Part shown: one piece after another, positions 8,139 through 41,427 of the stretch
Layout of the letters: the number at the start of each line of letters is the position of its first letter
How positions within the stretch are numbered: the first letter of the stretch is position 1
From: a virus
DNA length: 42,569 nt
Strand: one strand, 5' to 3'
Virus record (IMG/VR): IMGVR_UViG_3300010430_000138
Location: 1-42,569 of that record
Program-made: the position numbers and the translations under genes
Notes under the pieces: model-generated
Told to the model about the DNA's origin: nothing
The model's input: the letters and a program-made list of their open reading frames with translations, nothing else
Databases searched by the model: none

Positions 8139-8601
8139 GCTTCAAAGCGTGCTAGAGGCTCTACAAGCTACCCTTGAGGTAAACCAATCGACTACGGTTT
8201 ATTCTCCGGACCGTGTTCAAATCATGTTGTTCTGGCCGGATGAGGTTGCTATCCCAGACGGGATAGAGACTGTCTACCTCATTCGTCCGGGAGTCAAGAC
8301 TGCTGGACAAGTCCAGTCGTGTGATGTGACGGAGCGTCTTGAAGTGTTCATAGTTGCGGCGCATCGCTATCGATCAGCGTCACAAGATCCATTCAAGGAA
8401 GATCCGAGCCGAGTCATAGTTTCAGCGGATCTCATCGCGGACGTTGAAGAGAAGCTTCGGCAGGACCCCAAGCTTGATAGCACTGTATTGGATGCTCTCG
8501 ACGGCACACAGGATACGGATTTCGAGCGGTTTCTCCCGGAGTGGGTTGTGCCTGAACTTCGTCTGCTAATCCGTTATCGCTACTCGAAAGACGAACGATG
8601 A
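8128..8601 (+). CDS. Tail terminator/completion protein candidate
   Basis: This 157-aa protein has the size, position and mixed alpha/beta pattern of lambda gpU-type tail terminators, which cap the tail tube and join it to the head. An N-terminal helix (KLQSVLEALQATLEV) is followed by strands (TVYLIRPG, RLEVFIVAAHRY) and a C-terminal strand (PELRLLIRYRYSKDER), typical of this fold. ATG 8128 lies inside the end of the previous gene; the stop overlaps the following small gene by 4 bases. Assignment is by synteny and shape, not by a diagnostic motif. Confidence 0.6.
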   Translation: MASKLQSVLEALQATLEVNQSTTVYSPDRVQIMLFWPDEVAIPDGIETVYLIRPGVKTAGQVQSCDVTERLEVFIVAAHRYRSASQDPFKEDPSRVIVSADLIADVEEKLRQDPKLDSTVLDALDGTQDTDFERFLPEWVVPELRLLIRYRYSKDER

Positions 8602-8765
8602 CCCTTGATGAGTTGGCGGAACTATTGGTAGATATCCAGAATCGCCTTGAGCGGTTGGAGGAGTGGCGCGTCGATGCCGCCAGAGATCATCTTCCATTAT
8701 CAACCCTGGAGGAACAGCACAGGTCATTTGTGGCGCGTCTGCATGGGCGCGGGGGAGAGGACTGA
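8598..8765 (+). CDS. Small helical protein (55 aa)
   Basis: A 55-aa reading frame starts at ATG 8598 in an ATGA overlap with the previous stop and ends at TGA 8763-8765. The protein begins MTLDELAELLVDIQNRLERL and is almost wholly amphipathic helix with heptad-like Leu/Ile spacing, suggesting a short coiled coil. No family recognised. The tight coupling on both sides and good codon use argue it is real. Confidence 0.55.
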   Translation: MTLDELAELLVDIQNRLERLEEWRVDAARDHLPLSTLEEQHRSFVARLHGRGGED

Positions 8766-8834
8766 ATGTGCTGCGGAGATGAGGTTGCGTCTCGCCCGCC
8801 AGGCGTAGCGCCTTCGAGAGTTCGAGGTGGAAAG

Positions 8835-9035
8835 ATGGCAAAGGTTTACAGTGCTGTCCCGGGATTAAAGGTGATGATCCAGGGTCACGGGCTCGCCACC
8901 GAAGATGAGCCTGTTACCGTGTCGGAGGATGTGGCCAGGGATGTGGAAAAGGATAAGCGGCTTCGGGTTGAGAGGGATGAGCCCGCCCCGCGGCTGGCGC
9001 CGAAGCCCCCAAGGGCCGTGGCGAAGAAGGAGTAA
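8835..9035 (+). CDS. Small basic-tailed protein before tail tube gene
   Basis: A 66-aa protein with an acidic middle (TEDEPVTVSEDVARDVEKDK) and a Pro/Lys/Arg tail (APRLAPKPPRAVAKKE). I chose ATG 8835, which has GAGGTGG (8824-8830) well spaced upstream and gives the MAKVYSAV start; an in-frame ATG at 8766 immediately after the previous stop would add 23 residues and cannot be excluded. It shares design with the 60-aa protein at 6844-7026. Function unknown. Confidence 0.5.
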   Translation: MAKVYSAVPGLKVMIQGHGLATEDEPVTVSEDVARDVEKDKRLRVERDEPAPRLAPKPPRAVAKKE

Positions 9036-17857: not shown

Positions 17858-17870
17858 CGAGGAAAGAGTA

Positions 17871-17936
17871 GGGCGGTGCGAGTCTCCCCGGATCGGTCTG
17901 GTCCGGTCCGACTCTCCCTCGGCCAAGGTCCCGCCC
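17871..17936. terminator. Nested inverted repeat between convergent genes
   Basis: Three nested arms pair: GGGCGG (17871-17876) with CCGCCC (17931-17936), GAGTC (17880-17884) with GACTC (17910-17914), and CCGGA (17888-17892) with TCCGG (17902-17906) around a 9-base loop, with a symmetrical TCC/TCC internal loop. It fills the only space between the rightward tail operon and the leftward gene. No U-run follows on either strand, so bidirectional termination is plausible but unproven. Confidence 0.45.
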
Positions 17937-17941
17937 GAACA

Positions 17942-18307
17942 TTAGTGTCTCAGACTCACATTTGATGTCAAGCCCTGGGAGACATTCCAAGCACTCACGG
18001 TCATAAGCAGAGCCACGATTCCCCACCGGAGCCATCTCGCGGTTCGATCATGTCCGTTATGCCGTAGTAGGTAGAAGGCCCCCAAAACCACAGCTGTTCC
18101 GAGGGCTTTTTTCGCAGCCATGTGTTCTGTCATCCGGCTGTTTGCCTCGTAGCATGTCGGGCAGGCAGAGAGGGCGAAGCGCGTCGAGGCGTAATCGGCT
18201 GCGTTCATGGCTGTGACCCATACGATGTCTCGCTTGAATCCCTCTTGATCCCAGGCGAAAGCTGGGGTGGCGATCATCAGCACGAGCAAGGCAACAATCG
18301 TTCTCAT
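17942..18307 (-). CDS. Exported/membrane small protein on opposite strand
   Basis: A 121-aa protein, the only gene on the - strand. It has a clear Sec signal peptide (MRTIVALLVLMIATPAFA, then WDQEG), a middle with MNAADYASTRFALSACPTCY then EANSRM, and two hydrophobic helices near the C-terminus (KALGTAVVLGAFYLL and WGIVALLMTVSAW). The DxxxTxxAL...E-x-N pattern recalls DUF5658-like membrane proteins, at low certainty. I chose the second ATG (18305-18307) because GAGGGG sits 8 bases before it. Its own promoter and orientation suggest a separately expressed accessory (moron) gene. Confidence 0.65.
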   Translation of the reverse strand: MRTIVALLVLMIATPAFAWDQEGFKRDIVWVTAMNAADYASTRFALSACPTCYEANSRMTEHMAAKKALGTAVVLGAFYLLRHNGHDRTARWLRWGIVALLMTVSAWNVSQGLTSNVSLRH

Positions 18308-18329
18308 GGGTCTGTCCCCTCTCATGAAC

Positions 18330-18358
18330 AATATACGCCTTGACTAGCGCTAGGTCAA
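18330..18358 (-). promoter_or_regulatory. Sigma70-like promoter for the leftward gene
   Basis: On the - strand TTGACC (18353-18358) and TATATT (18330-18335) are separated by exactly 17 bases, each matching the consensus at 5 of 6 positions. The start point would fall about 15-20 bases before the ATG of the leftward gene. This is the best promoter I can see in the window and suggests host-polymerase expression independent of the late operon. Confidence 0.75.
18340..18358. promoter_or_regulatory. Palindromic operator candidate over the promoter
   Basis: The perfect 10-bp palindrome CTAGCGCTAG (18344-18353) is flanked by TTGA and TCAA arms with a one-base offset, making TTGAC...GTCAA. It occupies the spacer and -35 of the leftward promoter and begins with TTGACT, a possible -35 for rightward transcription toward 18376. 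Its place at the divergent start of the early block makes it a likely repressor or activator site. Confidence 0.5.
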
Positions 18359-18375
18359 TCGCTTACCTTTCGCTT

Positions 18376-18537
18376 ATGGCCAAGAACAGGGCGGCGGTCG
18401 GGATGGGAAAACTTCGCTGGAAGGGTAAGACCAAAGCCCAGCGACGGGCCCACATGAAGATGATGTCCGACAAGGCGGCTGCTGCCCGGAAGAAAAAGCG
18501 CCGACGGCCCCCTGCCCATGAGGAGGCTAAGCCATGA
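18376..18537 (+). CDS. Small highly basic protein (53 aa)
   Basis: The first gene of the rightward early block. It starts MAKNRAAVGMGKLRWKGKTK and contains a dense basic run (ARKKKRRRPP), suggesting nucleic-acid binding. ATG 18376 has no visible ribosome site; if the TTGACT at 18340 is a -35, transcription could begin almost at the ATG and give a leaderless message. It overlaps the next gene by 4 bases (ATGA). No family recognised. Confidence 0.55.
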   Translation: MAKNRAAVGMGKLRWKGKTKAQRRAHMKMMSDKAAAARKKKRRRPPAHEEAKP

Positions 18538-20780: not shown

Positions 20781-21727
20781 GCATTCGGCAGGAGTACGCC
20801 GAACGCATCCGGGCGTTGCGGGCCGCTTCTGTAGAAGCGTTTGTCGCTACCGGCCAGGAGCTGCTTCGAGCCAAGGATGAGTTACCCCACGGCGAGTTTG
20901 AGGGGCTAGTGCGGGAGGACTTGGGGTGGAGCAGGGCCACGTCAGCTCGGCTTATGGAGATAGCTCGGCACCCCATCATCTCAGATGTAGCACATGTGCG
21001 ACATTTGCCTCCCGCGTGGGGAACACTCTACAAGCTGACTCGCCTTGATAACGAGGTGCTCGAGTCCGCCCTGGGTTCCGGCGCGGTTCATCCCGGCTTA
21101 GAGCGAAAGGACGTGGCGGCGCTGGGGCCGGCTGAGTCCCTGCCGCCGCAGATTGTAGGCCGTACCGAGACTGTCAAGAAGTTGGAGTCCCTGATTGCAG
21201 CAGGGAGGCGGTACGGCACGGTCTATGCCGATCCGCCGTGGGCCTACAGCAATCAGGGCACGCGAGCGGCAACCAGCAACCACTACGGCACGGAATCCAT
21301 CGAGTACATCGCAGGGCTTCCGGTCAGTCAGCTCGCAGCAGAGAACGCGCATCTCCACCTCTGGACGACAAACGCCTTTCTCTTCGACGCTCGCCGGGTC
21401 ATGGAGGCGTGGGGCTTTGAGTACAAGTCTTGTTTCGTCTGGGTCAAGCCGCAGATGGGGATAGGAAACTACTGGCGCGTGTCTCACGAGTTCATGCTGC
21501 TCGGCGTGCGTGGCTCTACGCCATTTGGGGACCGGGGCCTGATGAGTTGGGCGCGGATGGATAGGACGAAACACAGCGCGAAACCGGAGTCAGTGCGCCG
21601 AATGATAGAAGCGGCAAGTCCCGGGCCCCGCCTAGAATTGTTCGGGCGCCGCAAGATGGTGGGCTGGACTGTTTGGGGGGACCAGATCGAGGGGTCACTC
21701 TTCGTGGAGGCCGAATCCATTGACTGA
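20777..21727 (+). CDS. DUF3102 + MT-A70 adenine methyltransferase
   Basis: A 316-aa two-domain protein. Residues about 5-65 (EYAERIRALRAASVEAFVAT then GQELLRAKDELPHGEF) match the DUF3102-type helical domain. Residues about 145-310 are an MT-A70-family N6-adenine methyltransferase, with the catalytic ADPPWAYSN (DPPW at 152-155), LHLWTTNAFLFDA and ELFGRRKMVGWTVWG. It starts at GTG 20777 with GAGGGGGA upstream. It would methylate adenine in phage DNA, probably as protection or regulation. A PD-(D/E)XK-like gene overlaps its end, resembling a restriction-modification pair in layout. Confidence 0.85.
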   Translation: MSIRQEYAERIRALRAASVEAFVATGQELLRAKDELPHGEFEGLVREDLGWSRATSARLMEIARHPIISDVAHVRHLPPAWGTLYKLTRLDNEVLESALGSGAVHPGLERKDVAALGPAESLPPQIVGRTETVKKLESLIAAGRRYGTVYADPPWAYSNQGTRAATSNHYGTESIEYIAGLPVSQLAAENAHLHLWTTNAFLFDARRVMEAWGFEYKSCFVWVKPQMGIGNYWRVSHEFMLLGVRGSTPFGDRGLMSWARMDRTKHSAKPESVRRMIEAASPGPRLELFGRRKMVGWTVWGDQIEGSLFVEAESID

Positions 21728-22322
21728 CGTTTATCGAGAATGCAAGGACTTTGGCGATCGGTTGGTACAAATCCTCAAGGTTCCATTGTCCCGAAGCTAT
21801 CTAGTGGAGAACATGATTTCTCGGGACGCTCAGTTACGGGACGGCGATTTGCGCGTAACGGCACTGAACGGAACATCTCCCTTCCTGGGCAGGCAAGCGA
21901 ACATCGAGGTCAAGGGCGAATGGCAGCACACGGGTAATCTATTCATTGAGGTGTTCAGCAATAAGAGGCTGCGTCGCCTTGGCTGGTTGTTCAATTTGCT
22001 CAGATGCGATGAGCTCCTCTATGGATTCCATGACGAGCAGATTTTGTATTGCCTCAACTTCGGGCAGTTGTGGGGCTGGTGCTGGTCGAAGCAAGGCAGA
22101 AAGCACGATTTGCGCGATCGTGGAAGGCCGAATATTTACAACTATCCGCTGGTTAAACAGAAGAAGTACGAGCAAGCAAACGATACATGGGGAGCGCTCG
22201 TGCCTGTCCACCACCTGAAGGCAGACGGGGCGATTCAGTCGGTGCGCGACTTAGGCCTAGTGGAGAAGTGGACGCAGAAGAGTCCGGCCCCGGTATTTGG
22301 CCAGCAGTCGCTCTTTTCTTGA
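21720..22322 (+). CDS. PD-(D/E)XK nuclease-like protein
   Basis: A 200-aa protein from TTG 21720, overlapping the methyltransferase by 8 bases. The core reads FGDRLVQIL, RDGDLRVTAL, then ANIEVKGEWQHTGNLFIEVF; the spaced Asp plus E-V-K followed by TGNLFIE is the arrangement of a PD-(D/E)XK fold common in phage resolvase- and restriction-like proteins. The C-terminal half (YNYPLVKQKKYEQANDTWGA) is less clear. Partnership with the adjacent methyltransferase is suggestive. I have not confirmed all catalytic positions. Confidence 0.55.
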   Translation: MTDVYRECKDFGDRLVQILKVPLSRSYLVENMISRDAQLRDGDLRVTALNGTSPFLGRQANIEVKGEWQHTGNLFIEVFSNKRLRRLGWLFNLLRCDELLYGFHDEQILYCLNFGQLWGWCWSKQGRKHDLRDRGRPNIYNYPLVKQKKYEQANDTWGALVPVHHLKADGAIQSVRDLGLVEKWTQKSPAPVFGQQSLFS

Positions 22323-22336
22323 GAGGGGGAGTAGCT

Positions 22337-22471
22337 ATGGCTAGAGGTTTGATGCTGACGCGGAAGGGCCAGAACTTCATGCTTGAACTAGAGCGGGCGG
22401 GGGTGATTCGAAAGCGGAGTTGGTGGGTCCGGTTGAATCATTGGGTGCGCTTTGGCATTCCGTTGTGGTAG
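22337..22471 (+). CDS. Small basic protein (44 aa)
   Basis: A short frame with GAGGGGGA 8 bases before ATG 22337. It starts MARGLMLTRKGQNFMLELER and ends in an aromatic, basic stretch (RSWWVRLNHWVRFGIPLW). No family recognised. It is the last likely coding sequence before the long non-coding block. Confidence 0.45.
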   Translation: MARGLMLTRKGQNFMLELERAGVIRKRSWWVRLNHWVRFGIPLW

Positions 22472-22487
22472 CATGTCCCTAACGAAC

Positions 22488-23133
22488 GAAAGCCCGCCGC
22501 AGGAGTTAGCTGCTGACGGGCTTGGAGCACCTGAATGCACCAGGCACCCAACGGGACGTTCCCAATTTACAGCCTGTGTAGTGGTGCGTCAAGCCCTTTC
22601 GCACTATCCCTTGCGGTGGAGGGAGGTTCAAAGAAGCAGGGTAGCGGGGATAAACCCGCCGGGCCACAGGGGAGGCTCCCTGAGCCGTCATCCCTTGAGA
22701 GTCCCCGACCGCTATGCTCAGGTAAAGTCGGTTGCCGGTGTGAATCCGGCCCCTGTTTCTTTGAGCCCCCCTCCCACAGTCTTATCCGGCTGGCCGAGTG
22801 GGGCGTACAAGCGAACCGGGTCATCCAACCGAAAGAGGGTTCACCCTCGGTTGGTTTCATGGAGCAGTACCATCCGCGGAAGCGGTGCCCCGCTAGCCCC
22901 GAGGGCAGAAGGCCACCCAAGGCCCGAAGTGGTACAGGTGAAATATCGGGGGATGAGCCGACCCGGTACTGCTCCATCAAGCCAACCGGGGGGTTTTCCG
23001 GGCAACGGGCACAGGTCGTGTGCATTACCTCAACGCCCCGGTCCACAAGCGACACCAAAGCAACCCTCGTATAAGGCTGGGGGCCTCGCAAGCCCCAAGG
23101 ATGGCGAATCGGTCGGCGACAGATTAAGTCGCA
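22488..23133 (+). ncRNA. Large structured non-coding RNA candidate
   Basis: About 650 bases hold no protein-like frame but many complementary segments. A 21-bp helix joins 22621-22641 to 22751-22775 (two G-U pairs, one 4-C bulge) and encloses hairpins 22644-22659, 22674-22686, 22705-22731 and 22734-22750. A second long helix joins 22848-22871 to 22965-22988 (23 of 24 pairs, 13 uninterrupted) and encloses a GNRA-type hairpin (22874-22885, loop GGAA). Further hairpins are at 22490-22523, 22825-22854, 22998-23041 and 23116-23132. The G-U pairs only work on the + strand. Size, ornate layout and phage early-region location recall GOLLD- or ROOL-type giant RNAs, but I cannot assign a class. The GGTTGG at 22849-22854 can pair with either of two CCAACC segments, so alternative folds are possible. 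Confidence 0.7.
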
Positions 23134-23347
23134 AGGGATGAGGTGTGTGATGACGACCAACTACGTGCCGTGCGCGAAGTGTGGGAAGCCGGCGAAGGCT
23201 CTGAGCCATTACGTCCCGCCCGTGACGTGGAACGGGGGGCTCGTCTGTGTTGACTGCACCCGTGAGCTCCAGGGGAGGGAGCGGCGGCCTGATGGTGGCC
23301 TCCCGGCCCAGTCGCAGCAGGGGTACTTCGGCAAGGGATGAGGTGTG
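23131..23347 (+). repeat. 17-bp direct repeats carrying ribosome sites
   Basis: GCAAGGGATGAGGTGTG occurs at 23131-23147 and again at 23331-23347, exactly 200 bp apart. The second copy ends in the GTG start of the MazG-like gene; in the first copy the same GTG is followed at once by TGA and translation can start 5 bases later at ATG 23150. The arrangement looks like a duplicated translation-initiation segment bracketing one small gene. Confidence 0.65.
23150..23341 (+). CDS. Small zinc-ribbon protein (63 aa)
   Basis: It starts MTTNYVPCAKCGKPAKALSH and has two C-x2-C pairs (CAKC and CVDC), a compact zinc ribbon, then a basic and Gly/Gln-rich tail. GAGGTG (in the 17-bp repeat) precedes ATG 23150. 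Function unknown; likely nucleic-acid or protein binding. Confidence 0.55.
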   Translation: MTTNYVPCAKCGKPAKALSHYVPPVTWNGGLVCVDCTRELQGRERRPDGGLPAQSQQGYFGKG

Positions 23348-23623
23348 CCCTTGATTGAGACAAAGGCTTCGCTGGTGTGGCGCAAGGGAGATGCTGTCGC
23401 AGGCGAAGTTCTGCGCGAGTTGCTCCGTGCCGTCGAGAAGTTCACACCCTTCCACAGCGGGCATGAGGGTTACGCGGTCATCCTGGAGGAGCTCGATGAG
23501 CTCTGGGATGAGGTGAAGAAACGTCCGAGCGAGAGAAATACGCAGAAGATGCGGGGCGAAGCCGTACAGGTTGCGGCTATGGCGATCCGGTTCATCACGG
23601 ATGTTTGTGAGAAGGAAGAATGA
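23345..23623 (+). CDS. MazG-like nucleotide pyrophosphohydrolase
   Basis: A 92-aa helical protein from GTG 23345. The core HEGYAVILEELDELWDEVKK (E-E-L-D-E-x-W-D-E, with paired E-x2-E metal ligands) and the later RGEAVQVAAMAIRFITDVCE with E-A-V-Q-V-A-A-M match small all-alpha NTP pyrophosphohydrolases of the MazG superfamily. Such proteins hydrolyse non-canonical or alarmone-related nucleotides and are common in phages. The stop overlaps the next gene by 4 bases. Confidence 0.7.
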   Translation: MPLIETKASLVWRKGDAVAGEVLRELLRAVEKFTPFHSGHEGYAVILEELDELWDEVKKRPSERNTQKMRGEAVQVAAMAIRFITDVCEKEE

Positions 23624-24117
23624 GCGCCGGCCTTTTGTTCCCCGAGTTGGCTCCTGCGGTTACGCCGGCTCGGACGTACTCCCGGGTTCTTACGGTTCAG
23701 ATGAACGGCAAGGGCGTCCTGGACTGTGACACGGTGAAGGGGTGTACCTCGGGCATGGCTGTCTACCCGGACGGTGGCTGTTATGGGGAGTGCTATGCGG
23801 CCAAGGGAGCGACCCGGAGCGGGATTGATTTCTCGGTGAGCGTCAGTCGGAAGCTTATGGACCGGGAGCACATTGCGACAGTTATTCATGAGATGCGGAA
23901 GCATTCTGTGGGTTGGTATCGGGTCGGCGTGGCGGGTGACCCGTGCCACGACTGGGACGGGACCATGTCGTCCCTGCGGGTGCTCAGATATGCTGGCAAG
24001 ACCCCGGTGGTCATCACCAAGCACTGGCGACCGCTCGAGGATAGACACATCGAATTCGATAGGCGGAGGGAAGCTGGTGTCCCTGCACAGTGGTGCAGCT
24101 TTTCTTGGGCGGTGTGA
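23620..24117 (+). pseudogene. Truncated DUF5131/Gp37-like protein
   Basis: This 165-aa frame has DCDTVKGCTSGMAVYPDGGC then YGECYAAKGA, RVGVAGDPCHDWDGT and AGKTPVVITKHWRPL, which match the first half of a longer phage family (about 300 aa; cysteine-containing, related in pattern to DUF5131/Gp37-Gp68 and SPL-like proteins). It stops just after QWCSFSWA. In the other frame immediately downstream lies RCDACPDQCGTTG (about 24105-24145), which looks like the lost C-terminal Cys cluster. I infer an internal deletion with a junction near 24108. It may still give a short product. Confidence 0.6.
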
Positions 24118-24172
24118 TGCCTGCCCGGACCAGTGCGGTACGACAGGGAAAGAACCGAGGGAGGCCGTCTCG

Positions 24173-25507
24173 ATGCAAAAGGATTTATTCGAGCGCAAGG
24201 TTGAATTCAAGCACGTCGAATCGGTCATTGGGTCCGGCCATGAGGAAGCGGTTTCCGCGTTGGCGCTCGAGGATGGGATTGCCCACCGTGCCGCCCGGAA
24301 GAACATGCAGATCCACTCGGCGATCATTTTACTGATCAATGGGGACTTTGCTGGTTTTATGACCTTCCAGATCAACGATGAGTGCCGAGAATTCTGCTTG
24401 CTCCAATCCGTTATCAAGCCCGAGCTATACACGGACGAGCTCTACTTGGAGATGGTCCGGGCGGTCATAGGCCAGAACACCAAAAGCTATCCAGCTCTTA
24501 TGACCACCAATCCGAAATCAAAATTCGAGACCCCAAAACTGTTTGAGCAGTTGGGTTTCTTCACCTATCTAAAGATGGGTGAGTTCCACTATATGGCGCA
24601 CGGTGACCCCGCGGATGTTCGGATGAAACTGCTGGCCCACATCAGCATGACCAACGTCTGGCAGTCTACCCGCGGGGATTGGTTGCGGATCAAGAAAGAA
24701 TGGAAAGCCAAGATCGAGGAGGCCGGCGAGAAGCACAAGGTTCAGAACCCGATGTTCGCCACCCGAGACGGGTGTTGGAACAGCTTTGCGGAGATCGTGG
24801 CCGGCAGGTCCCATAATGGGAACGCATCAGTCTTGGACTCGACGGCGTGCGAGGTCATCCTGCGCTTCTTTATGCCACGCGAAGGACGCCGCATCTACAA
24901 TCCGTTCGGGGGTGGGGTTCAGTTCGGGTTCATTGCCGGCGCCTATGGGTACGAGTACATCGCCAGCGAGCTCAGGAAGAATCAGTCGGACGCGAACAAC
25001 GCCATCTGCTCGGAGTTCGATTCTGTGTCTTGGGTGTGCGCGGACTCTGCGACGTATGAGCCTGAGGGAATGTTCGATCTGATGTTCACTTGTCCGCCCT
25101 ACTACAAGGTGGAGAAGTACCTTGACTACGACGGCAAGCCCCCGCCTGGCGAACTTAATAGCTTGTCCACCTATGAGGTGTTCCGGGACACGCTTTTTGA
25201 GGGCTACCGGCGGGCCATTGCTCACTTGAACGATGGATGCTTTTTCGTGGTGATGACAGGGGACAGCCGGGACTCTAAGGGGGCTTATCACTGCTCGGAA
25301 GCGGAGACCGAACTATTCCTGCGTGATCAGGGGCTGTCAATCTACAACCGGATCATCTATCTCGAGGCGGAGTTCACCCGTTTGGCGCAGGCGAAAACCA
25401 CTCTCAACACCCGGAAGTTTCCGAAGAGGGAGCAGAAAGTCATCGTGGCGTACAAGGGGGACATCAAGGACATTCAGGCCAGGTACGCGAAGATGGGGCG
25501 GCTATGA
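24173..25507 (+). CDS. GNAT-like + DNA methyltransferase fusion
   Basis: A 444-aa protein. The N-terminal part (about 20-150) looks like a GNAT acyltransferase: MQIHSAIILLINGDFAGFMT, a LQSVIKPEL stretch and PKLFEQLGFFTYLKMGEFHY. The C-terminal part is a class I DNA methyltransferase with motif I NPFGGGVQFGF (243-253) before motif IV TCPPYYKVEKY (306-316) and a final GD..D-S-K-G region. Pattern fits phage DNA modification methylases. The fusion suggests a two-step base modification, comparable in idea to Mom; that is inference. ATG 24173 has GGGAGG about 9 bases upstream. Any MazG-like and DUF5131-like connection is contextual. Confidence 0.7.
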   Translation: MQKDLFERKVEFKHVESVIGSGHEEAVSALALEDGIAHRAARKNMQIHSAIILLINGDFAGFMTFQINDECREFCLLQSVIKPELYTDELYLEMVRAVIGQNTKSYPALMTTNPKSKFETPKLFEQLGFFTYLKMGEFHYMAHGDPADVRMKLLAHISMTNVWQSTRGDWLRIKKEWKAKIEEAGEKHKVQNPMFATRDGCWNSFAEIVAGRSHNGNASVLDSTACEVILRFFMPREGRRIYNPFGGGVQFGFIAGAYGYEYIASELRKNQSDANNAICSEFDSVSWVCADSATYEPEGMFDLMFTCPPYYKVEKYLDYDGKPPPGELNSLSTYEVFRDTLFEGYRRAIAHLNDGCFFVVMTGDSRDSKGAYHCSEAETELFLRDQGLSIYNRIIYLEAEFTRLAQAKTTLNTRKFPKREQKVIVAYKGDIKDIQARYAKMGRL

Positions 25508-25767
25508 CCCCGGAAGAGAAGCAGCAATACACCCATGAGGTGGTCCTGGCCCTCTCAGGCAAAGAACCCGCTGATACCTGGCTCTCCAACGCTGACATCA
25601 CCACCATAGGGGACTGGATACGGCAGGACATTCCACTTCGAGTGGTGCTCCAAGCTATTGAGCAAGTCAAGGTCAGGCGGAACTTCGACAACGTGAAGAA
25701 CCCGATTCTCTATCTGAGGCCTGCGGTAGAGGAGGAGTGGAACCGGGTGCGGAGGGCGCGAGCATGA
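25504..25767 (+). CDS. Hypothetical helical protein (87 aa)
   Basis: It starts at ATG 25504 in an overlap with the previous stop. Sequence features are helical, with IPLRVVLQAIEQVKVRRNFD, NPILYLRPAVEEEWNRVR. The pattern resembles small phage proteins of replication regions that bind DNA or a helicase, but no family is certain. Confidence 0.55.
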   Translation: MTPEEKQQYTHEVVLALSGKEPADTWLSNADITTIGDWIRQDIPLRVVLQAIEQVKVRRNFDNVKNPILYLRPAVEEEWNRVRRARA

Positions 25768-38742: not shown

Positions 38743-41427
38743 GTGGCTAGCGAAACTAAATACGCTAGTTCGCATATCACAGGGAGTTGTAGCACTCCCA
38801 CTAATGCCAATGGCTCCGCCGATGGCACTTTCACCACCGACGACGGAAATGTTGATTGGACCAGTCGATGGCAGATGGAGACTGCCACCGGAAGGCTCGT
38901 CGGAACGCAGTCTATTGAAGTCTATGTTCGTAAGAGTGGCGCAGGCACCGGCACCCCTGGCTGTGGCGTCTACGTCTACGAAAACGGCACCCTTCGTGCC
39001 ACCCTTCACACGGAGACTGTTGGGGATGTAACCAGCACGACGGGAGAGACGCTCGGGCCGTATGACTTCGATGCCTCGGTTCTGAATGATCCCCAGGCCG
39101 GGGACGTAGAGATTCAGCTTGTTGCTGCTGCTCATGGCGGTGGGCCTAATGCTGAAACGGTCCAAGTTGATGAAATCAAATGGTCAGTCAACTACTCTAC
39201 GGAATCCGCGTCGGTTTCGCCGAGTGCTAGTGCGAGCCCCTCGGAGAGTCCTTCGGCTTCTGCTTCCGAATCTCCATCTGAGAGCCCTTCCGAATCTCCG
39301 AGCATCAGTCCATCAGCTAGCGCCTCGCCTTCCGAGAGTCCTAGCGAATCTCCGAGCGTAAGCCCTTCGGCCTCGGCGAGTCCGAGCGAATCCCCCTCGG
39401 AGTCGCCAAGTGAATCGGCGTCAGCCTCTCCGTCGGCTGCAGAGCTTTCGACGGTAGACGATGTTGTTCTTGAATGGATTGAGAGTTCGCCATCTGTCTC
39501 ACCAAGCTTGAGCCCGTCAGCTTCGGCCAGCCCCTCCGAAAGCCCTAGCGAGTCTCCCAGCCTAAGCCCTTCGGCTTCGGCAAGCCCCTCGGAAAGCCCC
39601 TCGGAGAGTCCGTCAGAAAGCCCGTCTGAGAGCCCTAGCTTAAGTCCTTCAGCTTCGGCGAGTCCATCGGAGAGCCCAAGCGAGTCTCCGAGCCTGAGTC
39701 CTTCGGCTAGTGAATCTCCTAGCGAGAGTCCAAGCCCGAGCGCTTCGGAAAGTCCCAGCGAATCTGCAAGCGAAAGTGCAAGCCCTTCCGCGTCTGCGGC
39801 TGAGAGCCCTTCGCTTTCGCCGTCAGCCAGTGAGTCGCCGTCAATCTCTCCCTCGCCGTCGCTCTCGCCTTCGGCTTCAGAGTCACCCTCGCTTTCTCCG
39901 AGCGCTTCGGCTTCGGCGAGTGAGTCTGCTAGTGCGTCTCCCTCTGAAAGCCCAACCTCAACGGTTGATGATGTTATCCTGGCTTGGGTAGAAGGAAGCC
40001 CGTCTCTAAGCCCCTCGGCTTCGGAGAGCCCGAGCGAAAGCGCGAGTGCTTCGGCTTCGGAGAGCCCGAGCGAAAGCCCATCAGTTTCGCCATCTTCTTC
40101 CGAGAGCCTAAGTCTAAGTCCTTCCGTTTCGATTTCTTCCTCAGCTAGTGCATCACCGAGTGAGGAACCCCCTGCCAGTCCAGTATTGGGTCGGCGTCCT
40201 GTGGCGTTTCATCCGGGCGAAGGTCCGCTTGATCTGGCACGATTCTATCGGACTCAAAGGCCGACTGCTGTTCCGGCTGTCGAGAGTCCGTCCATTTCGC
40301 CTTCGGCGTCGGCGAGCCCGAGTGAGTCACCCAGTGAGAGCCCAAGCGAGAGCTCTTCGGAAAGCCCTTCCGAATCGCCGAGTCTGTCTCCGAGTGCGAG
40401 CGCTTCGCCTTCGGGTGCTGTAGAGAGCCCTTCGCTCAGTCCATCGGCAAGCCTTTCGCCGAGTGCCAGCGAGAGTCCGTCGGAGAGCCCCTCAGTTAGT
40501 CCCTCTGAAAGCCCTAGCGAATCACCTAGTATTTCTCCGAGTGCTTCGGCTAGTCCCAGCGAATCTCCTAGCGAATCGCCCAGTCTGAGCCCTTCGGCTT
40601 CAGCTAGTCCCAGCGAAAGCCCCTCTGAAAGTCCCAGCCTAAGCCCAAGCCCGTCTGAGAGTCCTTCAGCTAGTCCCAGCGAGAGCCCTAGCCTCTCACC
40701 CAGCGCTTCGGAGAGCCCCTCAGTTAGTCCCTCAGAAAGCCCTTCTCTAAGTCCTAGCGCTTCAGAGAGCCCTTCCGAGAGTCCGAGTGAATCTCCCTCC
40801 GAAAGTCCCTCACTATCGCCCTCAGCGAGCGCTAGTCCTTCGGGCGCGGTTCCGAGTCCTTCTCTTAGTCCATCCGCAAGCCTTTCGCCCTCAGCTAGCG
40901 CCAGCTCTTCAGAGAGTCCCTCCGAAAGCCCATCGGCCAGCCCTTCCGAGAGTCCATCGCTTTCGCCGTCGGCCTCTGAGAGTCCTTCGGAAAGTCCTTC
41001 TGAGAGTCCTTCTCTTAGTCCCTCGGCGAGCGCTAGTCCTTCGGCCTCAGCTAGCCCGTCCGAAAGCCCCTCCGAAAGCCCGTCACTCAGCCCTAGCGCT
41101 TCAGAGAGCCCGTCAGAATCGCCTAGTGAGAGTCCAAGCCTCTCGCCCAGTGCCTCAGAGAGCCCCAGCGAGAGTCCTTCGGAAAGTCCTTCGGAATCTT
41201 CGAGCCTGAGCCCCTCAGCGTCGGAGAGCCCCTCACTCTCGCCATCGGCCTCAGAGAGTCCAAGCCTTAGCCCTAGTGCATCTTTGAGCCCGTCGGCCTC
41301 AGAGAGCCCTTCTCCAAGCCCTTCCATTACGGAGCTCGCAGAGGAACGGACTTGTGTGGTTGCCGCAGAGGCCAGGGTTTATCCGGTGCTCTGGGAGAAT
41401 CGCATATGCCAGCCAAGCGCCAGATAG
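38743..41427 (+). CDS. Giant Ser-Pro-Glu/Ala repeat protein (894 aa)
   Basis: A protein of about 150 ordered residues followed by about 710 residues of Ser-Pro-Ser-(Glu/Ala/Leu) repeats. The N-terminal domain reads VDWTSRWQMETATGRLVGTQ, SIEVYVRKSGAGTGTPGCGV and DVEIQLVAAAHGGGP. Two copies of STVDDV(V/I)LxW interrupt the repeat, as does PVLGRRPVAFHPGEG. The end (ERTCVVAAEARVYPVLWENR) is a short motif repeat common beside phage adaptor genes. GTG 38743 is the start. It may be a long flexible, sugar- or phosphate-bearing stalk of a fibre. Confidence 0.7.
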   Translation: MASETKYASSHITGSCSTPTNANGSADGTFTTDDGNVDWTSRWQMETATGRLVGTQSIEVYVRKSGAGTGTPGCGVYVYENGTLRATLHTETVGDVTSTTGETLGPYDFDASVLNDPQAGDVEIQLVAAAHGGGPNAETVQVDEIKWSVNYSTESASVSPSASASPSESPSASASESPSESPSESPSISPSASASPSESPSESPSVSPSASASPSESPSESPSESASASPSAAELSTVDDVVLEWIESSPSVSPSLSPSASASPSESPSESPSLSPSASASPSESPSESPSESPSESPSLSPSASASPSESPSESPSLSPSASESPSESPSPSASESPSESASESASPSASAAESPSLSPSASESPSISPSPSLSPSASESPSLSPSASASASESASASPSESPTSTVDDVILAWVEGSPSLSPSASESPSESASASASESPSESPSVSPSSSESLSLSPSVSISSSASASPSEEPPASPVLGRRPVAFHPGEGPLDLARFYRTQRPTAVPAVESPSISPSASASPSESPSESPSESSSESPSESPSLSPSASASPSGAVESPSLSPSASLSPSASESPSESPSVSPSESPSESPSISPSASASPSESPSESPSLSPSASASPSESPSESPSLSPSPSESPSASPSESPSLSPSASESPSVSPSESPSLSPSASESPSESPSESPSESPSLSPSASASPSGAVPSPSLSPSASLSPSASASSSESPSESPSASPSESPSLSPSASESPSESPSESPSLSPSASASPSASASPSESPSESPSLSPSASESPSESPSESPSLSPSASESPSESPSESPSESSSLSPSASESPSLSPSASESPSLSPSASLSPSASESPSPSPSITELAEERTCVVAAEARVYPVLWENRICQPSAR
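39202..41325 (+). repeat. 2.1-kb SPS(E/A/L) coding repeat
   Basis: About 2.1 kb of short, imperfect repeats encodes SPSESPSESPSLSPSASAS-type units. Serine is written with both AGY and TCN codons in mixed order, so the DNA is less repetitive than the protein. The pattern keeps one frame throughout with no stop codon, a sign of selection for length and composition. Confidence 0.85.

What the first reader, a model, noticed from the sequence alone, without database searches (positions are those of the whole stretch)
22488..23133. Large ornate RNA with two long-range helices in the early region
Seen: roughly 650 bases with no protein-like frame but two long-range helices (21 bp between 22621-22641 and 22751-22775; 23 of 24 positions between 22848-22871 and 22965-22988), a GNRA hairpin, and at least seven other hairpins. 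G-U wobbles in both long helices pair only if the + strand is the RNA. The hairpin 22734-22750 resembles a tRNA T-arm (loop TGTGAAT). Known: giant structured RNAs such as GOLLD and ROOL occur in phage and prophage genomes near tRNA or early genes; I cannot place this one. Inference: a phage-encoded giant RNA, possibly of a new class, perhaps multimeric.
Basis: partly seen in the sequence, partly recalled or inferred. Interest (0 to 1): 0.9.

Follow-up and report, generated by a model that had tools for sequence, protein, structure and literature searches.

The report
Orphan structured RNA in phage genome
An uncultivated phage carries a roughly 500-base, non-coding, strongly folded stretch with two long paired stems that matches no known RNA family, and its nearest relative has a similar two-stem stretch in the same part of its genome although the sequences no longer match, which makes it a good but unproven candidate for a new phage RNA.

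Summary
The two long-range helices are the two strongest inverted repeats in the 42.6 kb window and exceed whole-window shuffles. No frame is coding-like. The folded core is about 22495-22999 (domain z-scores -3.6, -6.8, -5.4).

No Rfam family matches, including GOLLD and ROOL. No homologue was found by sequence, pattern or single-sequence covariance model, so covariation could not be tested.

The nearest relative found (L114/G048, terminase 56%) has an ORF-less stretch in the corresponding early-region interval. It carries its own genome's two strongest inverted repeats side by side, followed by an intrinsic terminator. There is no sequence similarity to the window RNA. Of 172 sequences (2.8 Mb), only the window and that relative have such side-by-side pairs.

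Best reading: an uncharacterised phage structured RNA, plus strand, probably acting as RNA rather than as a DNA element. Whether it acts in trans or in cis is open. 'Giant' and 'multimeric' are unsupported.

The parts
22337..22471 (+). 44-aa ORF directly upstream of the structured stretch (flank, not part of the RNA)
   Evidence: list_orfs-type translation and codon score 0.04
22495..22612 (+). Domain A: interrupted 13-bp long-range helix 22518-22525/22589-22596 plus 22527-22531/22583-22587, with inner hairpins
   Evidence: fold z -3.6
22618..22641 (+). 5' arm of long helix B
   Evidence: inverted repeat rank 2 of the window
22644..22733 (+). Head of domain B: hairpins 22644-22659, 22661-22704, 22707-22733
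   Evidence: pair probabilities about 0.75-1.0; domain z -6.8
22734..22750 (+). T-arm-like hairpin, 5 bp, loop UGUGAAU, abutting the 3' arm of helix B
22751..22774 (+). 3' arm of long helix B
22825..22854 (+). 8-bp local hairpin (22825-22832/22847-22854) that is mutually exclusive with the outer part of helix C
   Evidence: read from sequence; not the predicted minimum-energy fold
22844..22871 (+). 5' arm of long helix C
   Evidence: inverted repeat rank 1 of the window
22874..22885 (+). GGAA (GNRA) tetraloop hairpin in the head of domain C
   Evidence: pair probability about 0.9
22965..22992 (+). 3' arm of long helix C
22993..22999 (+). GTTTTCC directly after helix C; possible but weak termination or end signal
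   Evidence: sequence; not called as a terminator by the scan; structure ends here
23150..23341 (+). 63-aa zinc-ribbon-like ORF downstream (flank, not part of the RNA)
   Evidence: codon score 0.03; CxxC pairs in translation

Best explanation
A phage-encoded structured RNA of about 500 nt made from the + strand of the early region, built of a small domain A and two long-stem domains, B and C. It most likely works as an RNA that is released from, or ends within, the early transcript, persists through its fold, and acts on a host or phage partner in trans. Shown: non-coding, folded well beyond chance, outside Rfam, and a two-long-stem counterpart in the corresponding interval of the nearest relative. 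Inferred: transcription, strand, processing and action in trans. The partner is unknown.
For: Two strongest inverted repeats of the genome lie side by side here and exceed 113 shuffles. Domain z-scores -6.8, -5.4, -3.6. No coding signal. + strand is more stable in the window (-311.8 against -300.2) and in the relative (-228.5 against -215.1). The nearest relative, G048, has its own two strongest inverted repeats adjacent to each other between the counterparts of genes 19155 and 23620, in an ORF-less stretch followed by an intrinsic terminator on + (82, 101, 104, 105). That stretch was the strongest of 3,713 folded tiles in 61 loci. Among 172 sequences only these two phages show side-by-side pairs.
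Against: No alignable homologue, hence no covariation. The two RNAs share no sequence above shuffles and cross-model hits score about equally on both strands. No promoter was found upstream on + and no clear terminator after domain C. G-U asymmetry is only 4 to 1. Domain C folds equally well on both strands. The element sits at a somewhat different place relative to neighbouring genes in G048.
Confidence: 0.45

Rival explanations
1. A cis-acting element of the early transcript: long stems cut by RNase III, or a nascent-RNA antitermination or attenuation element that sets expression of the genes downstream.
For: All neighbouring genes are on + and nearly contiguous, so the stretch is probably co-transcribed. 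Stems of 23-27 bp would be RNase III substrates (general knowledge). Phages do use cis RNA stem-loops for antitermination (HK022 put RNA, PMC9378689). In G048 a terminator and then a gene follow directly. Segments 22606-22615 and 22688-22697 can pair with the ribosome-binding site of the 63-aa ORF (26, 49).
Against: Predicted accessibility of that ribosome-binding site is unremarkable among 35 starts. The size (about 500 nt, three domains with elaborate heads) exceeds what processing or put-like elements need. The window lacks a terminator after the element.
Confidence: 0.3
2. A DNA-level element: replication origin, recombination site or remnant of a mobile element whose inverted repeats are read by proteins.
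For: No replication protein was recognised among the genes scanned apart from a weak DnaD-like match at 25504-25767. Palindromic iteron arrays do occur upstream of the terminase in Nitrosomonas and Pseudomonas prophages.
Against: The arms are not repetitive, unlike those iteron palindromes. The repeats enclose folded heads and differ by G-U rather than at random. No target-site duplication or multicopy relatives. No GC-skew switch at this place.
Confidence: 0.13
3. A diverged member of a known ribozyme, intron or giant-RNA family that the covariance models miss.
For: T-loop-like and GNRA motifs recur in many known structured RNAs (general knowledge). Phage context and size resemble ROOL and GOLLD.
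Against: No relevant Rfam match at gathering or at E 10 on the region. GOLLD and ROOL models give nothing, though the ROOL search rang in no control genome either. HDV descriptor scan gave no convincing layout and no hammerhead core is present. Flanking ORFs are complete, so no split gene.
Confidence: 0.06

Closest known systems
ROOL RNA (Rfam RF03087; PMC12286853)
   Same: Phage- or prophage-encoded non-coding RNA of similar size (659 nt in the solved example), complex fold, function unknown
   Different: No match to the model; no tRNA island here; two long closing stems instead; oligomer state unknown
GOLLD RNA (Rfam RF02032; PMC12286853)
   Same: Phage-encoded large non-coding RNA; conserved 3' part and variable 5' part in GOLLD recalls domain-wise variation
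   Different: No match to the model; many GOLLD exceed 800 nt, this core is about 505 nt; no tRNA nearby
ICP1 ~800-nt non-coding transcript (PMC7567579)
   Same: ORF-less phage stretch without tRNAs, not assigned to a known family
   Different: ICP1's is demonstrated by RNA-seq and lies next to the lysis cluster; here expression is unknown and the site is the early region
HK022 put RNA (PMC9378689)
   Same: Structured RNA within a phage early transcript made of adjacent stem-loops (layout from general knowledge)
   Different: put is about 70 nt near the start of early operons (general knowledge); this is about 500 nt inside the early region
Two-stem stretch of relative G048 (L114:8578-8960)
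   Same: Same early-region interval, two successive long stems, ORF-less, + strand more stable
   Different: No sequence similarity; smaller heads; domains 2 nt apart instead of 69; own terminator; different order relative to some neighbouring genes

Membership tests
GOLLD (RF02032) | match to the family covariance model | tested here: not met
   no match in the window at E 10 or at gathering
GOLLD (RF02032) | RNA-only multimeric cage | not testable with these tools
   needs native gel or cryo-EM
ROOL (RF03087) | match to the family covariance model | tested here: not met
   no match in the window; rang in no control genome, so it is weak alone
ROOL (RF03087) | location near tRNA genes (usual, not absolute) | tested here: not met
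   no tRNA or tmRNA gene in the window
tRNA / tmRNA-like RNA | canonical cloverleaf recognised by ARAGORN | tested here: not met
   0 genes; domain B only shares arm order, linker lengths and a 7-nt T-loop-like loop
Group I / group II introns | family model match and interrupted host gene | tested here: not met
   no Rfam match; both flanking ORFs are complete
Self-cleaving ribozymes (HDV-like, hammerhead) | core layout and motifs | tested here: not met
   descriptor scan and motif scan, no Rfam match
Phage large structured non-coding RNA (broad kind) | non-coding and folded beyond shuffled sequence | tested here: met
Phage large structured non-coding RNA (broad kind) | fold supported by covariation in homologues | tested here: inconclusive
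   no alignable homologue; G048 supports architecture and site only
Phage large structured non-coding RNA (broad kind) | expressed as a discrete RNA | not testable with these tools
   no transcript data

The most novel reading that the evidence does not exclude
A new class of phage non-coding RNA, defined by two successive long-stem domains in the early region, whose architecture and approximate genomic site are kept while its sequence diverges beyond recognition between phages whose terminases are still 56% identical.
Probability: 0.3. Interest if true: 0.75.

Novelty: new variant of a known kind. Interest (0 to 1): 0.5.

Why it matters
Only a few large structured RNAs of phages are known and none has a settled function. 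An unassigned element with an architectural counterpart in the nearest relative's early region is a concrete, testable candidate. It also hints that such RNAs may escape sequence-based discovery because their sequence turns over faster than their fold.

Tried and rejected
Coding gene in any of the three long ORFs: codon scores negative, no Pfam match for the two tested. Rfam at gathering and at E 10. HDV-like ribozyme: GGGCAAC and UGGCGAAU motifs were seen by eye, but the descriptor scan gave no convincing layout and the fold would break helix C; no hammerhead core. Intron: flanking ORFs are complete. Ribosome-binding-site sequestration: complementarity exists, but accessibility is unremarkable among 35 starts. 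DNA homologues in phages and plasmids (only chance hits in 29). IMG/VR exact and gapped patterns and a pseudo-translation (the eight hits of 70 are chance, 72, 73). Neighbour gene 21720-22322 as a route to relatives: nothing. Model R1 over held loci, 26 bacterial genomes, 50 viral records, and 396 plus 385 further genomes; models R2 and R3. Homology of the window RNA to the G048 RNA by alignment: not above shuffles; cross-model hits score alike on both strands. A second ORF-poor stretch at 17870-18530 is not unusually folded on + (69). A 400-nt tiled fold control timed out and was replaced by 250-nt tiles. A first script failed on a syntax error.

Full report
Observation. The window is an IMG/VR virus record of 42,569 bases with terminase, portal, head protease, capsid and tape-measure genes of a tailed phage. 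Between a 44-aa ORF ending at 22471 and a 63-aa zinc-ribbon-like ORF starting at 23150 lies a stretch with no coding signal in any frame. The two long helices reported are real and are the two strongest inverted repeats in the window. Watson-Crick scores are 19 and 15, while the best score anywhere in 113 shuffled windows was 14. On the + strand the six non-Watson-Crick positions of the two helices are four G-U, one A.C and one C.C. On the - strand only one would be G-U. This favours the + strand as RNA, modestly. Folding is far below dinucleotide shuffles for 22613-22777 (z -6.8), 22836-22999 (z -5.4) and 22495-22612 (z -3.6), but not for 23000-23133 (z +0.8). The structured unit is therefore about 505 nt, not 646. 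In 250-nt tiles across the genome, the two tiles covering it are second and fifth lowest on +.

Anatomy. Domain A has a 13-bp interrupted long-range helix. Domain B is a 23-bp helix closing a five-way junction. Its linkers and arm order (2 nt, short arm, 1 nt, long arm, variable-like arm, then a 5-bp arm with a 7-nt UGUGAAU loop abutting the main helix) resemble a class II tRNA in topology. No tRNA is predicted, so this is a resemblance only. Domain C is a 27-of-28 helix with a loosely defined head that includes a GGAA tetraloop, and it is followed by GUUUU. An 8-bp local hairpin (22825-22832/22847-22854) would compete with the outer part of helix C, so two exclusive folds are possible (inference from sequence).

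Known families. cmscan of the window at gathering thresholds and of the region at E up to 10 gave no relevant match. The GOLLD and ROOL models gave nothing, although the ROOL search rang in no control genome either, so alone is weak. Literature used: PMC12286853 on GOLLD, ROOL and OLE; PMC7567579 on the unassigned ~800-nt ICP1 RNA; PMC9378689 on put RNA (title and abstract only).

Homologues. Searches of annotated phages and plasmids, IMG/VR patterns and a pseudo-translation, and single-sequence covariance models over held loci, whole viral records and about 800 bacterial genomes found none. These searches reach only close or structurally very similar relatives, so a diverged family could exist unseen. 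Covariation could not be assessed.

The relative. Among phages that share the gene downstream (23620-25507), L114 (record G048, 45 kb) is the closest by content: large terminase 56%, small terminase 45%, the downstream gene 60-73%, the upstream gene 19155 42%, the HNH gene 43%, a tail gene 39%, in the same order. In its early region, between the counterparts of 19155 and 23620, it has an ORF-less stretch (8578-8983; best + frame -0.12, against 0.03 to 0.30 for the neighbouring genes). That stretch carries the two strongest inverted repeats of its own genome, adjacent to each other: 22 of 22 and 21 of 22 pairs, with 62- and 97-nt heads. It folds at z -6.0, is more stable on + (-228.5 against -215.1) although the - strand z is similar (-6.4), and is followed by an intrinsic terminator on +. 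It gave the most strongly folded of 3,713 tiles around this gene in 61 loci. A scan of 172 sequences (2.8 Mb) found side-by-side pairs of such repeats only in the window and in this relative. L115 carries the same 600 bases as L114 and is not independent, and two Nitrosomonas loci have nested arms of a single palindrome. The two RNAs do not align above shuffles, and models of one match the other about equally on both strands, which is what any long stem does. So the correspondence is one of position and architecture, not proven homology. The order of some neighbouring genes also differs between the two phages.

Interpretation. The most economical reading is a structured RNA that the phage lineage keeps for its fold. 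Whether it is a free RNA acting in trans (preferred) or a cis element of the early transcript (RNase III processing, antitermination) cannot be settled from sequence. A DNA-level function is less likely but not excluded, since iteron palindromes occur upstream of the terminase in some Nitrosomonas and Pseudomonas prophages. Those look quite different, with arms made of short tandem repeats.

Noticed in passing
window 23620-25507: The gene that is one ~733-aa ORF in relatives (for example L114:9941-12142) is split in two frames in the window, and about 85-105 residues between the two parts are missing or unalignable: a deletion with frame change, an assembly error or a decayed gene.
   Followed up: partly
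L084:7948-8200, L080:7931-8150, L090:7781-7919, L065:2388-2527; L105:7526-7739, L086:7729-7840: Prophages of Nitrosomonas and Pseudomonas with the same terminase family carry, about 2 kb upstream of the large terminase gene, palindromes whose arms are tandem short repeats (such as TTCCATACC or GTGTTGGGT), mostly around an alternating purine-pyrimidine core; they look like DNA-binding or origin elements.
   Followed up: partly
window 23131-23147 and 23331-23347: Perfect 17-nt direct repeat GCAAGGGATGAGGTGTG, each copy overlapping a stop codon and the ribosome-binding site of the next gene; 22606-22615 and 22688-22697 are complementary to it.
   Followed up: partly
window 22825-22854: Local 8-bp hairpin that is mutually exclusive with the outer part of long helix C, so the RNA could switch between two folds (sequence).
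   Followed up: no
L122:17057-17358: Inverted repeat with 65-nt arms near the contig end, probably the remains or ends of a mobile element.
   Followed up: no
L114:8425-8577 and window 22337-22471: In both phages a small basic, tryptophan-rich ORF of 44-50 aa ends just before the structured stretch; no alignment was made, so this may be chance.
   Followed up: no
window 38743-41427: Long ORF near the right end whose DNA contains many tandem copies of GAAAGCCC/TCCGAAAGTCC-type repeats (Ser-Pro-Glu-rich protein), seen as weak inverted-repeat hits.
   Followed up: no
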